A stretch of 64,000 nucleotides of DNA, taken from NCBI GenBank assembly GCA_902520695.1, contig CABYOT010000002.1:62001-126000 (forward strand), given 5' to 3'. The position numbers were made by a program, and so were the translations under genes. The DNA is from an uncultured Pelagibacteraceae bacterium. GTDB taxonomy: Bacteria; Pseudomonadota; Alphaproteobacteria; Pelagibacterales; Pelagibacteraceae. Numbering within the stretch: the first letter of the stretch is position 1; every line of letters starts with the position of its first letter. Shown in pieces: positions 1-10,812 of the stretch. The notes beneath the pieces were generated by a model. It did not search any database, had not been told where the DNA came from, and saw only the letters and a list, made by a program, of their open reading frames with translations.

Positions 1-253
1 ACAAGCAGAGCAAGAGGGTCTGGATAAAATATTTTTAGAATCAGGCTTTGAATGGAGAGAGCCAGGCTGTTCAATGTGTCTAGCAATGAATGCGGATAAG
101 CTTAAACCTGAAGAAAGATGTGCATCTACCTCTAATAGAAATTTTGAGGGTAGACAGGGAAGAGGTGGTAGAACACATTTAGTTAGTCCAGCAATGGCTG
201 CAGCAGCTGCAATTTCTGGAAACTTAGATGATGTTAGAAAATACCAAAATTAA
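1..253 (+). CDS. leuC: 3-isopropylmalate dehydratase large subunit, C-terminal end (partial)
   Basis: This is the last 83 codons of LeuC, cut by the left window edge; reading starts at base 2. LeuC and LeuD form the aconitase-type isomerase that converts 2-isopropylmalate to 3-isopropylmalate in cytosolic leucine synthesis. The visible part has [11 protein letters not shown], which carries two of the cysteines that hold the [4Fe-4S] cluster, then [12 protein letters not shown] and [13 protein letters not shown], all typical of the LeuC C-terminus. The stop codon is followed directly by the ATG of leuD, so the two subunits are almost certainly translated together. The assignment is firm despite truncation. 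Confidence 0.95.
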
Positions 254-6557: not shown

Positions 6558-7568
6558 ATGAATATAGCAATAGTAGGAGCGACAGGAAACGTAGGTCGAA
6601 AATTAATAGAAGTTCTGGAAAAAAAAAACTTTCCAATAACAGAGGCTTACTTAGTTGCGTCTTCAAATAGTGAAGGAAAAAAAATCAATTTTTTAGGAAA
6701 AGAGCATACTGTTAGTAATTTAGAACAATTTGATTTCTCAAAAGTAAAAATTGCTTTTTTTGCAGCTGGTTCTTCAATTGCTGAAAAATGGGCACCGATC
6801 GCAGCAGAAAAAACAATTGTAATTGATAATTCAAAATTCTTTCGAAAAGATCCAGAAATTCCTTTAATTGTTCCAGAGGTAAATTCCAAAGAATTACCTA
6901 AATTTAAAAATAAGAATATTATAGCAAATGCCAATTGTTCGGTAATACCAATAGTTGTAGCTCTCAAACCATTGCATGATTTGTATAATGTAAAAAGAAT
7001 AGTTGCATCAACTTATCAATCTGTATCAGGAGCAGGTAAGGCAGGAATGGATGAACTTATTTCTCAAACTAAAGAAGTCATGGAAAATAAAGATGTTGAG
7101 TCAAAAAATTTTACTAAGCAAATCGCTTTTAATGCCATACCACATATTGATAGTTTTCTTGAAAATGGAAGTACAAAAGAAGAGCAAAAAAATCATGATG
7201 AGGTAAAAAAAATTTTAGATAGTAAAATTAATATAACATCTACTTGTGTAAGAATCCCTGTTCTTGTTTCTCACTCCATAAGTGTGAATGTTGAATTTAA
7301 CAAAAAACATGACTTAGAAGAAATAAGAAATGTCTTATCATCATCACCAGGATGCAAGGTAGTTGATGAGCAAAAAGATGGAGGATACATTACGCCAGTT
7401 GAAGCTGAAGACAAATTTGAAACATTCATATCAAGAATTCGCGAGGACTCTTCTCAACCAAATTCAATTAATTTGTGGGTTGTGTCTGATAACTTATTAA
7501 AAGGTGCTGCACTTAATGCAGTTGAAATTGCTGAGGCTTTAGTAGAAAAAGATTTTTATGGAAAATAA
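6558..7568 (+). CDS. asd: Aspartate-semialdehyde dehydrogenase
   Basis: Asd reduces aspartyl phosphate to aspartate semialdehyde, the branch point to lysine/diaminopimelate, threonine and methionine. The 336-residue protein opens with the Rossmann motif IVGATGNVGRKLIEVL and carries the catalytic cysteine Cys127 in ANANCSVIP, with the conserved TYQSVSGAGKAGMDEL that follows it. The last 11 bases overlap the start of sdhC, so it is probably translationally coupled to the succinate dehydrogenase genes even though the pathways are unrelated. Confidence 0.96.
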   Translation: MNIAIVGATGNVGRKLIEVLEKKNFPITEAYLVASSNSEGKKINFLGKEHTVSNLEQFDFSKVKIAFFAAGSSIAEKWAPIAAEKTIVIDNSKFFRKDPEIPLIVPEVNSKELPKFKNKNIIANANCSVIPIVVALKPLHDLYNVKRIVASTYQSVSGAGKAGMDELISQTKEVMENKDVESKNFTKQIAFNAIPHIDSFLENGSTKEEQKNHDEVKKILDSKINITSTCVRIPVLVSHSISVNVEFNKKHDLEEIRNVLSSSPGCKVVDEQKDGGYITPVEAEDKFETFISRIREDSSQPNSINLWVVSDNLLKGAALNAVEIAEALVEKDFYGK

Positions 7569-7941
7569 AAATCCAATTTCGCCACATATACAAATTTATA
7601 ATTGGCACATCTCCTCACTGGTTTCAATTTCACACAGAATAACTGGTATAATAAACTTTTTCACTATAACTTTAATAGGCATATGGATAGCTTCTTTACT
7701 ATTGGGTGAGCAGAGTTATCAGAATATTAATTTGTTCTTATCATCTTTTTTAGGCAAATTTTTTTGTCTTGGAATTATTTGGTCTTTTTCATTTCAAATG
7801 CTTAGTGAAATAAGACATTTGTTTATGGATTTAGGTTATGGTTTTGAGCAAAAAACTACAAAAATAACAGGACTAATTGTGCTAATCGGATCATTTCCAC
7901 TTACTGTAATAATCTTTATTATTGGAAGAGTTTTAATTTAA
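7558..7941 (+). CDS. sdhC: Succinate dehydrogenase cytochrome b556 subunit
   Basis: SdhC is one of two membrane anchors of complex II and passes electrons from the Fe-S subunit to ubiquinone. The 127-residue protein has the NxxISPHxxIYxW start of alphaproteobacterial SdhC, the quinone-site motif SISHRITG at 24-30 and three hydrophobic segments (about 30-50, 65-83, 103-125). His87 in EIRHLFMDLG corresponds to the haem b ligand His84 of E. coli SdhC. The start overlaps asd by 11 bases and the stop overlaps sdhD by 1. The ligand expected from SdhD is missing (see sdhD). Confidence 0.93.
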   Translation: MENKNPISPHIQIYNWHISSLVSISHRITGIINFFTITLIGIWIASLLLGEQSYQNINLFLSSFLGKFFCLGIIWSFSFQMLSEIRHLFMDLGYGFEQKTTKITGLIVLIGSFPLTVIIFIIGRVLI

Positions 7942-8264
7942 TGGGATCAGTTACAAAAAAATGGTTGTTCTTAAAAGTAAGTTCAGCAATATTAGTGCCT
8001 TTAATGCTATGGTTTGCGATTAATCTAGCTTCTATTTACGATAAAGGCTTTGAACAGGTATTACTATTTGTGTCTTCTCAACCTTCAAAGTTTTTGTTAA
8101 GTCTTTTTTTGATTTTTGCATATTTTTTCTCTGCACTAAGTATTAGCGAGGTTTTTGAGGACTATATCGAAGATCAAAAAATCAAAAATGCCGCAAATAA
8201 ATCTTTAAATATCTTTGCTATAGTATTTCCATTATTAATCATTATCTTAATATTTAGTTTATAG
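7941..8264 (+). CDS. sdhD: Succinate dehydrogenase membrane anchor subunit SdhD, lacking the haem-ligand histidine
   Basis: Its position between sdhC and sdhA, its 107-residue length and three hydrophobic segments (about 12-32, 50-70, 87-107) identify the second membrane anchor of complex II. The family motif that ends in aspartate-tyrosine is present as VFEDYI, with Asp74 and Tyr75 at the quinone site. The histidine that normally lies 11 residues before that Asp (His71 in E. coli) is Phe63 here, and the next conserved Gly is Ser67. The whole protein contains no histidine, so bis-histidine ligation of haem b by SdhC and SdhD cannot occur in the usual way. The gene is otherwise intact. Confidence 0.88.
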
Positions 8265-8266
8265 TT

Positions 8267-10042
8267 ATGAGTGCATACAAAATTATTGATCATGAATATG
8301 ATGTTGTTGTTCTAGGTGCAGGTGGTTCTGGGCTAAGAGCAGCTGTAGGATTGAGTGAAGCTGGATTAAAAACTGCATGTGTCTCTAAAGTGTTCCCAAC
8401 CAGAAGCCACACCTCCGCAGCACAAGGCGGTATTTCAGCAGCACTTGGAAATATGGGTGAAGATGATTGGAGATGGCATATGTACGACACTGTTAAAGGT
8501 GCTGATTGGTTAGGAGACCAAGATTCTATAGAATATTTATGTAAGGAAGCACCAGCTGCTGTTCTTGAATTAGAAAAGTATGGAGTTCCATTTAGCAGAA
8601 CAGATGATGGCAAAATTTATCAAAGGCCTTTTGGTGGTATGACAAAAAACTATGGAAATGAGACTGTACAAAGAACTTGTGCAGCAGCAGATAGAACTGG
8701 ACATGCAATACTTCACACATTGTATGGACAAGCTTTAAAGCATAACACTGAATTTTTTATAGAGTACTTTGCATTAGATTTAATTATGAAAGATGGAGCA
8801 TGCAAAGGTATAATTGCTTGGAACCTAAACGATGGAACAATTCACAGATTTAAGTCCCACACAACAATTATAGCAACAGGGGGTTATGGAAAAGTGTATT
8901 ACTCAGCTACATCAGCTCATACTTGCACTGGAGATGGTAATGCCATGGCTCTTAGAGCTGGATTACCTTTACAAGACATGGAATTTGTACAATTTCATCC
9001 AACGGGAATATATGGTCATGGAACATTAATTTCCGAAGGTGTAAGAGGAGAAGGTGGTTATTTAGTAAATTCAAAAGGAGAAAGATTTATGGAGCGTTAT
9101 GCTCCTAAAGCAAAAGATTTAGCATCTAGAGATGTTGTAAGTAGATCAATTGCTGTAGAAATTAATGAGGGTAGAGGTATTGGAAAAGAACAGGATCATG
9201 TTCATCTTCATATTGATCATTTGGATCCAAAAGTTATAGATGAGAGACTTCCAGGAATATCAGAGGCTTCAAAATTATTTGCAAATGTTGATGTAACTAA
9301 GGAACCTATCCCAGTAGTACCTACAGTGCATTATAATATGGGTGGAATACCAACAAATTATAAAGCAGAAGTTTTAACATTAAATGGATCTGAAAAAACT
9401 GTACCTGGGTTAATGGCTATTGGAGAAGCAGCATGTGTTTCTGTTCATGGCGCAAATAGATTAGGTTCAAACTCATTAATAGATTTAGTAGTTTTTGGAA
9501 GAGCGGCAGCGAAAAGAGCTGCAGAGTTAGTAAAACCTGGAATGAAGCATGATGAAATTGACAAAAATGAAACGGATAGATGTTTAGATAGATTTGACAA
9601 ATTAAGAAACTCAGAGGGTTCAAATCCAACATCTGAACTGAGACTTTCAATGCAAAAAACGATGCAATCAAAATGTGCTGTATTTAGAACTGAGAAAACA
9701 TTAAAGGAGGGCGTTGATGAAATTAGAAAACCTTATGATGGAATGGACTCTCTTTCTGTAAAAGATAAGTCATTAATCTTTAATACTGATTTAGTTGAAA
9801 CACTAGAATTTGACAACTTAATAAGACAAGCAATAACTACAATGGACTCTGCGTATCATAGAAAAGAAAGCAGAGGAGCTCATGCAAGAGAAGATTTTCC
9901 AAAAAGAGATGATGAGAATTATATGCAACACACTCTGTCTTGGTGTAATGGTTCAAAAACTAAAATTAATTATAGACCTGTTCATAGATCAACACTTACA
10001 AATGATGTACAATATTTTCCTCCACAGGAAAGAGTGTATTAA
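8267..10042 (+). CDS. sdhA: Succinate dehydrogenase flavoprotein subunit
   Basis: SdhA oxidises succinate to fumarate on the cytoplasmic face of complex II. The 591-residue protein has the FAD-binding [14 protein letters not shown] near the N-terminus and His48 in [11 protein letters not shown], the residue that carries covalent FAD in this family. Further conserved segments are the substrate-site [26 protein letters not shown] and the C-terminal [12 protein letters not shown]. Two bases separate it from sdhD and its stop overlaps the sdhB start by one base. No anomalies seen. Confidence 0.98.
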
Positions 10043-10812
10043 TGGTTCAATTAAATTTACCTGCAAACTCAAAGGTAGAAAAAGGTCAATATTATAAAGA
10101 TAAAACAGGTTCAAAAAATATTAGAAAAATAAATATTTATAGATGGGATCCATCTAAAAATGAAAATCCAAGACTTGATACTTATGAAGTTGATATGGAT
10201 AATTGTTCATCTAAAGTCCTTGATGTTTTAAACAAAATAAAAAATGAAATAGATCCTTCTATAGCTTACAGAAGATCTTGTGCCCATGGAGTTTGTGGAT
10301 CTTGTGCGATGAATATGAATGGAAAAAATGGTTTAGCATGCACGAAGTCCCATTCTGAACTGGATGGAGATATTGATATTTATCCTTTACCACATCTAAA
10401 AGTCTTAAAAGATTTAATCGGTGATTTAAGCACATTATATAAACAATATGAGTCTGTTGAACCTTGGTTAAAAACCTCAAAAGTAAATGATAAAGAGAAT
10501 ATCCAATCTAAAGACGACAGAGCAAAATTAGATGGATTATATGAATGTATTATGTGTGCATGTTGTTCAACGTCTTGTCCAAGTTATTGGTGGAACGGTG
10601 AAAAATATTTAGGTCCTGCAGTTTTACTTCAAGCTTACAGATGGATAATTGATAGTAGAGACGAGGACAGAAAAGAAAGACTAAAAAAGGTTGCTGACGA
10701 ACTTAAGCTTTATAGATGTCATACTATCTTGAATTGCACAAATGCTTGTCCCAAGGGCTTAAATCCTGCAAAAGCTATTGCAGAGATAAAGAAAATGCTT
10801 GCAACAGCTTAA
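10042..10812 (+). CDS. sdhB: Succinate dehydrogenase iron-sulfur subunit
   Basis: SdhB carries electrons from FAD to quinone through three clusters. All ligands are visible: Cys80, Cys85, Cys88 and Cys100 for [2Fe-2S]; Cys169, Cys172 and Cys175 in [12 protein letters not shown] for [4Fe-4S]; and Cys179, Cys226, Cys232 in the two C-terminal motifs, with Cys236 in [12 protein letters not shown], completing the [3Fe-4S] and [4Fe-4S] sites. Length (256) is normal. The Fe-S path is therefore complete although the haem site in SdhC/D looks altered. Confidence 0.98.

What the first reader, a model, noticed from the sequence alone, without database searches (positions are those of the whole stretch)
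7941..8264. SdhD has no histidine: the haem b axial ligand position is Phe63
In complex II, haem b is held by one His of SdhC and one of SdhD. SdhC keeps its ligand (His87 in EIRHLFMD). In SdhD the motif anchored on Asp74-Tyr75 puts Phe63 at the place of E. coli His71, the nearby conserved Gly is Ser67, and no His occurs anywhere in the 107 residues. The gene is otherwise intact, in its normal operon, with the quinone-site Asp-Tyr retained. Either this complex II has lost haem b, or the haem is held by SdhC and another residue. Loss of an iron cofactor would fit an iron-poor surface ocean.
Basis: partly seen in the sequence, partly recalled or inferred. Interest (0 to 1): 0.72.

Follow-up and report, generated by a model that had tools for sequence, protein, structure and literature searches.

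The report
Ocean bacteria's haem-free respiratory complex II
In the most common ocean bacteria (SAR11), the enzyme succinate dehydrogenase has lost both histidines that normally hold its haem, and the haem's socket has been rebuilt with other residues, so this central respiratory enzyme very probably works without a cofactor that nearly all its relatives keep.

Summary
In detail: SdhD (7941-8264) has no histidine, and Phe63 sits at E. coli SdhD His71, by sequence, profile and structure. It aligns with E. coli His91, which binds a haem propionate. The ligand column (E. coli His84) is Gln80, so this complex II has lost both axial ligands. It is a clade trait: in crown SAR11 (3 genera, 115 loci) none of the 110 read at both columns has both His. 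Sister SAR11 genera (14 of 14) and a class sample (SdhC 105/108, SdhD 103/105) keep them. Other pocket residues changed too: SdhC Gly88 to Glu (113/113), SdhD Arg20 to Lys (110/112). Quinone-site residues did not. Best reading: a haem-free, working type C complex II, like that recently shown by cryo-EM in yeast, with the socket refilled by side chains; Glu84 may stand in for a haem propionate. My paper searches found no report of this in SAR11. Iron saving is possible but untested: the switch occurred once, and one sister genus, probably also oceanic, keeps both His. Haem absence itself needs a purified enzyme.

The parts
7558..7941 (+). sdhC, 127 aa; haem ligand column (E. coli His84) is Gln80; Glu84 replaces a haem-facing Gly (E. 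coli Gly88); His87 = E. coli His91 (propionate residue); Ser23, His26, Arg27 kept
   Evidence: TIGR02970, 118.1 bits, cut-off 52.3; alignment to 1nek_C
7795..7797 (+). codon (CAA) of SdhC Gln80, the lost haem ligand
   Evidence: position computed, letters; alignment; 101 of 113 crown SAR11 rows are Gln, 12 His
7807..7809 (+). codon (GAA) of SdhC Glu84, Gly in haem-binding relatives; proposed stand-in for the distal haem propionate
   Evidence: Glu in 113 of 113 crown rows, Gly in 14 of 14 sister-genus rows; the role is inferred
7941..8264 (+). sdhD, 107 aa, no His; haem ligand column (E. coli His71) is Phe63; Lys12 = Arg20, Ser15 = Ala23, Ser67 = Gly75; quinone-site Asp74-Tyr75 kept
8127..8129 (+). 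codon (TTC) of SdhD Phe63, the lost haem ligand
   Evidence: position computed, letters
8267..10042 (+). sdhA, flavoprotein, ordinary
   Evidence: TIGR01816, 949.3 bits, cut-off 727.35
10042..10812 (+). sdhB, iron-sulphur subunit, ordinary (the His of its RCHTILNC stretch is present; that this is E. coli His207 is recalled, not aligned here)

Best explanation
This is a working succinate:ubiquinone oxidoreductase with the type C membrane-anchor fold but without haem b. Electrons run from FAD through the three Fe-S clusters to ubiquinone at a site made of SdhB, SdhC Ser23/Arg27 and SdhD Asp74/Tyr75, a route that does not need the haem. In the ancestor of crown SAR11 the haem pocket was rebuilt once: SdhD His was replaced by an aromatic residue, SdhC Gly by Glu, SdhD Arg20 by Lys, Ala23 by Ser/Gly, Gly75 by Ser/Thr. 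The SdhC His then became Gln in the window's genus and separately in genus g9. Side chains now fill the space. Glu84 of SdhC, one helical turn from His87 and facing SdhD Lys12, probably takes over the salt bridge that the distal haem propionate made and so keeps the network next to the quinone site. SHOWN: the substitutions, their spread over the clade, the register, the conserved quinone site, and conservation of the ligands outside the clade. INFERRED: the single ancestral rebuilding of SdhD, haem absence in the protein, the Glu-for-propionate role, and any benefit.
For: Register. Survey: class SdhC ligand column His 105/108, SdhD 103/105; sister SAR11 genera g5, g6, g7, g10 His/His 14/14; crown: g1 99 loci (QF 63, QY 19, QH 7, QN 4, HF 1, 5 incomplete), g8 HF 9/9, g9 QF 5 + HF 2. 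Named SAR11 loci: 63 of 65 lack at least one ligand His, 52 lack both. Column scan: class-conserved columns that switched in the crown include SdhC 87, 88 (G to E 113/113) and SdhD 19, 20 (R to K 110/112), 23, 75, while SdhC Ser27/Arg31 and SdhD Asp82/Tyr83 stay. The crown is one clade, 99*. Precedent: yeast complex II is type C, functional and haem-free with Tyr at the SdhD ligand column, and new residues incl. Glu four after it and a Lys replace the haem's bonds (PMC13066397 sections 7, 8, 13). E. coli haem is off the direct electron path; SdhC His91, SdhD Arg20 and SdhB His207 bind the distal propionate (PMC3290573 passages). In the class sample an acidic residue at either haem-facing Gly goes with ligand loss: 3 of 4 against 1 of 101, Fisher p 8.5e-5, not corrected for kinship. 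The genome keeps a ferrochelatase, so haem is made and the loss is specific.
Against: No protein or spectrum was examined. SdhC His26 and His87, close to the haem in E. coli, remain conserved in the crown and could hold a haem. In E. coli, single ligand mutants are reported to retain haem (Maklashina 2001, title only, in reference lists), so loss of one ligand, as in g8 (9/9) or the 7 QH members, need not mean haem loss. Met22 of SdhD is nearly fixed in the crown (108/112, Leu in 13 of 14 sisters) and is a possible new ligand. Seven same-genus members still have the SdhD His and 12 of 113 crown rows the SdhC His. The crown switch is one event on the tree, so the linked substitutions are not independent replicates within SAR11. 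Not all switched columns lie at the haem (SdhC 9, 40, 52, 74, 124 and SdhD 12 switched as well). A Ser at SdhD 23 alone leaves the haem in place in E. coli (A23S spectra, PMC3290573). The SdhC model superposes on E. coli SdhC less well (Z 12.1, rmsd 4.8) than SdhD does, so the SdhC register rests mainly on sequence.
Confidence: 0.82

Rival explanations
1. Haem b is still bound but by other residues: SdhC His26 or His87 on one side, SdhD Met22 or Tyr/His63 (in some members) on the other, or as a five-coordinate haem.
For: His26 is kept in 113 of 114 and His87 in 113 of 113 crown rows, and Met22 is almost fixed in the crown. E. coli SdhC His30 (= His26) lies about 3.5 A from the haem ring (PMC3290573). 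E. coli single ligand mutants retain haem (title only).
Against: His26 and His87 are as conserved in haem-binding relatives, where they are not ligands, so their conservation needs no new role; one member (L013) has Thr for His26. The window's SdhD has no His. Gly to Glu on the haem-facing side of SdhC and Gly to Ser/Thr on SdhD would crowd a porphyrin (geometric inference). By helix count Met22 lies below the level of the iron (inference).
Confidence: 0.13
2. The loss is an adaptation to iron scarcity: dropping the haem saves one of about ten iron atoms per complex II in the open ocean. (A question of cause; compatible with the best explanation.)
For: Both ligands are kept in the clade g5+g6+g7. 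L318, which I recall as a lake MAG (its title gives only the isolate name), is nearest to g6, and the group looks like brackish/freshwater SAR11 clade III by branching and genome size (inference). PMC10030771 passages report iron-transport and efflux genes in parts of that clade. The ligands are lost in genera that hold many of the named Pelagibacteraceae single-cell genomes.
Against: One transition only, so no test. Genus g10 and its relative L312, of the same series of single-cell genomes, keep both His. Most complex II iron, the Fe-S clusters, is retained.
Confidence: 0.3
3. Neutral drift: in small genomes the haem, dispensable for turnover, was lost because its benefit is slight, and the pocket was then repaired for stability. 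(A question of cause; compatible with the best explanation.)
For: The four ligand losses in the class sample (L199, L225, L232, L233) are all in genomes of 1.2-1.4 Mb, 4 of 15 fetched genomes of that size or less by my count of the table. In genus g1 the SdhD column varies among Phe, Tyr, Asn, His, as expected once the constraint is gone.
Against: Phe is the only letter in the largest g1 subclade of the tree, and Glu84 and Lys12 are all but fixed in the whole crown, which looks like selection for a new arrangement.
Confidence: 0.5
4. SdhD is a decaying or non-functional gene.
For: None beyond the lost ligand and a modest score to general SdhD models.
Against: Quinone-site Asp-Tyr 112/112 and SdhC Arg31 114/114 kept in crown rows; open frames without inner stops in all listed SdhD matches; operon intact; confident SdhD fold.
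Confidence: 0.01

Closest known systems
Haem-free type C complex II of Saccharomyces cerevisiae (PMC13066397; PDB 9QDL/9QDM)
   Same: Type C fold, intact quinone site, no His at the SdhD ligand column, haem-pocket residues replaced, Gly to Glu four residues after a ligand column, a Lys on the SdhD side in the new bonds.
   Different: Yeast keeps the SdhC-side His (His156) and has Tyr108 on the SdhD side; its new Glu is on SdhD. The window's SAR11 lost both ligands and its new Glu is on SdhC, the mirror position. Haem absence is shown in yeast, inferred here.
Escherichia coli SdhCDAB (type C, bis-His haem b)
   Same: Subunit folds, quinone-site residues, propionate-network residues SdhC His91 and Arg31.
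   Different: SAR11 lacks both axial His, Gly88 and Gly75, and has Lys for Arg20.
E. coli SdhC/SdhD ligand mutants (Tran 2007, Maklashina 2001/2010; titles seen in reference lists only)
   Same: A variant lacking haem b is in print; PMC13066397 says these studies show haem is not essential for assembly or activity.
   Different: Laboratory mutants; SAR11 is a natural form fixed in a clade, with further pocket changes.
Type D fumarate reductase FrdCD (no haem)
   Same: Two three-helix membrane subunits, no haem.
   Different: Different family: SAR11 SdhC scores 21.6 bits to Fumarate_red_D, below its cut-off of 25, and 98.9 to Sdh_cyt; the SdhD model aligns better to E. coli SdhD (Z 13.7) than to FrdD 1kf6_D (Z 9.5).

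Membership tests
Type C complex II (SQR with one haem b) | Two membrane subunits of three transmembrane helices, sdhCDAB type | tested here: met
   TIGR02970, TIGR02968, TIGR01816 and SdhB subfamily models over cut-off; three long helices in each AlphaFold2 model; top structural matches are E. coli SdhD and SdhC
Type C complex II (SQR with one haem b) | Quinone-site residues SdhC Ser27, Arg31; SdhD Asp82, Tyr83 | tested here: met
   Ser23, Arg27, Asp74, Tyr75; conserved across the crown
Type C complex II (SQR with one haem b) | Axial His on SdhC (E. coli His84) | tested here: not met
   Gln80 (101 of 113 crown rows Gln, 12 His)
Type C complex II (SQR with one haem b) | Axial His on SdhD (E. 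coli His71) | tested here: not met
   Phe63 (105 of 112 crown rows not His)
Type C complex II (SQR with one haem b) | One haem b present | not testable with these tools
   needs spectroscopy or a structure
Haem-free sub-type C as in yeast | SdhD ligand column Tyr | tested here: not met
   Phe in the window; Tyr in 19 of 96 same-genus rows
Haem-free sub-type C as in yeast | SdhC ligand His kept | tested here: not met
   Gln in the window; kept in g8 (9/9) and part of g9 (2/7)
Haem-free sub-type C as in yeast | Glu four residues after the SdhD ligand column | tested here: not met
   Ser67 in the window; Glu is on SdhC instead. Three class genomes (L225, L232, L233) have the SdhD Glu
Type D fumarate reductase | FrdC/FrdD sequence families | tested here: not met
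   below cut-offs

The most novel reading that the evidence does not exclude
The most abundant heterotrophic bacteria of the ocean run the TCA cycle through a haem-free type C complex II that arose stepwise. The SdhD ligand was lost first in crown SAR11, then the SdhC ligand twice, with a Glu that replaces the haem propionate. Separate losses in a second family of the order (SdhC His to Tyr) and in other small-genome alphaproteobacteria, like that in yeast, follow a shared rule: a haem-facing Gly four residues after a ligand becomes acidic. Haem b of complex II would then be a dispensable part that evolution has removed several times and replaced with a protein salt bridge.
Probability: 0.5. 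Interest if true: 0.78.

Novelty: new variant of a known kind. Interest (0 to 1): 0.66.

Why it matters
The role of haem b in complex II is a long-standing open question: it is conserved, yet lies off the electron path. SAR11 gives a natural series (both His; SdhD lost; SdhC lost; both lost) inside one bacterial order, each with an intact quinone site. Putting these natural pairs into E. coli would test whether the haem serves stability, catalysis, oxygen-radical control or nothing. It also means that calling SAR11 SdhC a 'cytochrome b556 subunit' (the name of the model it matches) is probably wrong, which matters for iron budgets and proteome models of the most numerous cells in the sea.

Tried and rejected
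Rejected: sequencing error or strain oddity (seen across the clade). Rejected: His87 as haem ligand. Rejected: a second complex II membrane anchor in the genome (one search finds only this pair; the assembly is about 91% complete, so a missed copy is possible). Rejected: an organism that makes no haem (ferrochelatase present). Led nowhere: phmmer of the single SdhD against PDB sequences (no true hit; the profile worked). mis-read loci on the minus strand, mended. One search picked the wrong Asp-Tyr in loops for some rows, corrected. In one search a motif filter missed the SdhC anchor in some rows (6 class rows among them); the alignment columns are the better count there. In one search some rows picked the wrong subunit as query; only clear rows were used. 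Paper searches for haem in SAR11 complex II, or for bacterial complex II that lost haem, listed no such report (titles and abstract starts of the listed papers only; open-licence PMC papers). Two E. coli papers (PMC2888824, PMC2084287) are not held, so I know them only from titles and recall. A model of the SdhC-SdhD pair with haem could not be made with the tools. Ligand loss outside Alphaproteobacteria was not searched for.

Sampling limits; 12 of 60 same-genus genomes and 22 of 40 f2 genomes had no SdhD match and were not read there, and two matching genomes (G028, G100) were not fetched, so the f2 rows are a selected set; 47 of 398 order genomes had no SdhC match, 12 of them among the 151 at least 90% complete; of the 351 with a match only those fetched were read (30, 30, 20, besides those). 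The 30 were chosen mostly as low-scoring outliers, so members with His or Asn on SdhD are over-represented; 108 of 119 other matching class genomes were fetched; 22 of 143 had no match. The 99 g1 loci are from 98 genomes (own genome twice, L003 and L126). The tree used 54 g1 rows after near-identical rows were dropped, 6 of 7 g9 rows, 7 of 17 f2 rows and 10 class rows. One search kept the best 80 of 580 relatives.

Full report
WHAT IS THERE. The window lies in the genome of a SAR11 bacterium: the nearest named SdhC, 100% identical, is from a Pelagibacteraceae single-cell genome, AG-457-O03. At 7558-10812 is an ordinary sdhCDAB operon. SdhD, 7941-8264, has 107 residues and no His. Its score to the SdhD model TIGR02968 is 45.6 bits against a cut-off of 41.8.

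THE REGISTER. Phe63 is the equivalent of E. coli SdhD His71. A profile of 49 relatives matches 1nek_D without a gap at offset +8. The AlphaFold2 model of SdhD (mean pLDDT 92.4) superposes on E. coli SdhD over 105 residues, 3..107 on 11..115. By the same offset Lys12 = Arg20, Ser15 = Ala23, Ser67 = Gly75, Asp74-Tyr75 = Asp82-Tyr83. The SdhC model (pLDDT 87.1) matches E. coli SdhC less closely (Z 12.1, rmsd 4.8 over 121 residues), so its register rests mainly on the sequence alignment.

THE CORRECTION. The alignment to E. coli SdhC puts His87 on His91 and Gln80 on His84. PDB entry titles name SdhC His84Met and SdhD His71Met mutants, SdhD His71 is called the haem ligand in PMC3290573 (passages), and the same paper has SdhC His91, SdhD Arg20 and SdhB His207 bound to the distal haem propionate. 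That SdhC His84 is the SdhC ligand is recalled knowledge. It agrees with yeast, where the SdhC-side His156 lies 11 residues before Asp167 (PMC13066397), as Gln80 lies 11 before Asp91. So both axial ligands are gone.

HOW WIDE. Searches read both ligand columns (SdhC, SdhD). Own genus g1, 99 loci of 98 genomes: QF 63, QY 19, QH 7, QN 4, HF 1, incomplete 5. Genus g8: HF 9 of 9. Genus g9: QF 5, HF 2. Other genera of the same family, g5, g6, g7, g10: HH 14 of 14. A second family of the order, f2 (17 loci, a selected set): YH 15, HH 2. Class sample of 108 loci: SdhC His 105, Tyr 3; SdhD His 103, Tyr 1, Val 1 of 105 read. Among 80 named loci, the 65 SAR11 ones are QF 40, QY 10, HF 10, QN 1, HN 1, FF 1, HH 2; the 15 others are all HH. 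Codons fit single-base steps from His: CAY to TAY (Tyr), AAY (Asn) or CAR (Gln), with Phe (TTY) one further step from Tyr.

NOT ONLY THE LIGANDS. A scan of all columns for those conserved in the His/His set and replaced in the crown returned, in E. coli numbers, SdhC 9, 40, 52, 74, 84, 87, 88, 124 and SdhD 12, 19, 20, 23, 71, 75. Eight of these fourteen (SdhC 84, 87, 88; SdhD 19, 20, 23, 71, 75) are the two ligands, or sit within one helical turn of them, or are described next to the haem in PMC3290573; six are elsewhere or not known to me. The most complete are SdhC Gly88 to Glu (113 of 113, against Gly 14 of 14 in the sisters) and SdhD Arg20 to Lys (110 of 112, against Arg 14 of 14). The quinone-site residues SdhC Ser27 and Arg31 and SdhD Asp82 and Tyr83 do not change.

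ORDER OF EVENTS. On a tree of SdhA N-terminus, SdhC and SdhD with six pocket columns left out (100 rows, quick method, SH-aLRT only), g1+g8+g9 form one clade (99*), g10 is its sister (85), g5+g6+g7 lie outside (97*) and f2 further out. The fewest changes are 3 for His against not-His on SdhD and 4 for the SdhC letter. The simplest reading is one loss of the SdhD His at the base of the crown with two returns of His in g1; separate losses with retention in g1 are not excluded. The SdhC His became Gln in g1 and in g9. Genus g1 member L020 has His on SdhC; whether that is retained or regained is unsure.

HOW IT PROBABLY WORKS. In E. coli the haem is not in the direct electron path (PMC3290573). 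In yeast a 2026 cryo-EM paper shows complex II without haem: Tyr at the SdhD ligand column bonds the SdhC His, and new residues, among them Glu112 four after the ligand column and Lys73, replace the propionate bonds (PMC13066397 sections 7 (first part), 8 and 13 read). SAR11 shows the same kind of change at the mirror place: Glu four residues after the SdhC ligand column, beside His87 and on the side of SdhD Lys12. I infer that Glu84 takes the place of the distal propionate and that side chains fill the rest. This is an inference from sequence and pseudo-symmetry; no complex was modelled.

OTHER LINEAGES. In the class sample four genomes lost a ligand (L199, L225, L232, L233), all of 1.2-1.4 Mb; by my count of the table, 15 of the fetched class genomes are of 1.4 Mb or less. 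Three of the four have an acidic residue at one or both haem-facing Gly columns, against one of 101 with both His. The sample is small and kinship is not corrected.

WHY. Iron saving is a fair idea: one of about ten iron atoms per complex (established knowledge). But the change is one event, g10 and L312 keep both His and are probably oceanic too (inference from the record name), and small genome size goes with loss elsewhere. I leave the cause open.

WHAT IS KNOWN. Haem-free type C complexes are published for yeast; the same paper says that Tetrahymena and Perkinsus complexes lack the haem (passage). A haem-less E. coli variant is in print (title only). My searches listed nothing on SAR11 or on a natural haem-free type C enzyme in bacteria, in a library that lacks most subscription papers. 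A paper on iron limitation in Pelagibacter does not mention sdh or succinate dehydrogenase (term search of its main text).

Noticed in passing
L049-L065 (family f2 of the same order): 15 of 17 loci have Tyr at the SdhC haem-ligand column with SdhD His kept, and Cys/Ser at the haem-facing SdhC Gly: a separate, opposite-sided ligand loss.
   Followed up: partly
L199, L225, L232, L233 (unnamed alphaproteobacteria, 1.2-1.4 Mb genomes): Further losses of one or both haem ligands; L225, L232 and L233 have Glu four residues after the SdhD ligand column, as yeast Sdh4 does, and L233 also after the SdhC one.
   Followed up: partly
window SdhD Met22 (codon 8004-8006): Met22 is nearly fixed in crown SAR11 (108 of 112) where sisters have Leu (13 of 14): cavity filler or possible new haem ligand.
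   Followed up: no
L013 SdhC: The otherwise conserved His26 (E. coli His30, next to the haem) is Thr in this same-genus genome.
   Followed up: no
L181: An alphaproteobacterium with both ligand His but Asp and Ser at the two haem-facing Gly columns: possibly an intermediate.
   Followed up: no
window SdhD Glu70: The column of E. coli Gln78 (proximal propionate) is Glu in all Pelagibacterales rows read, also those with both His, but Val in 85 of the 105 class rows.
   Followed up: no
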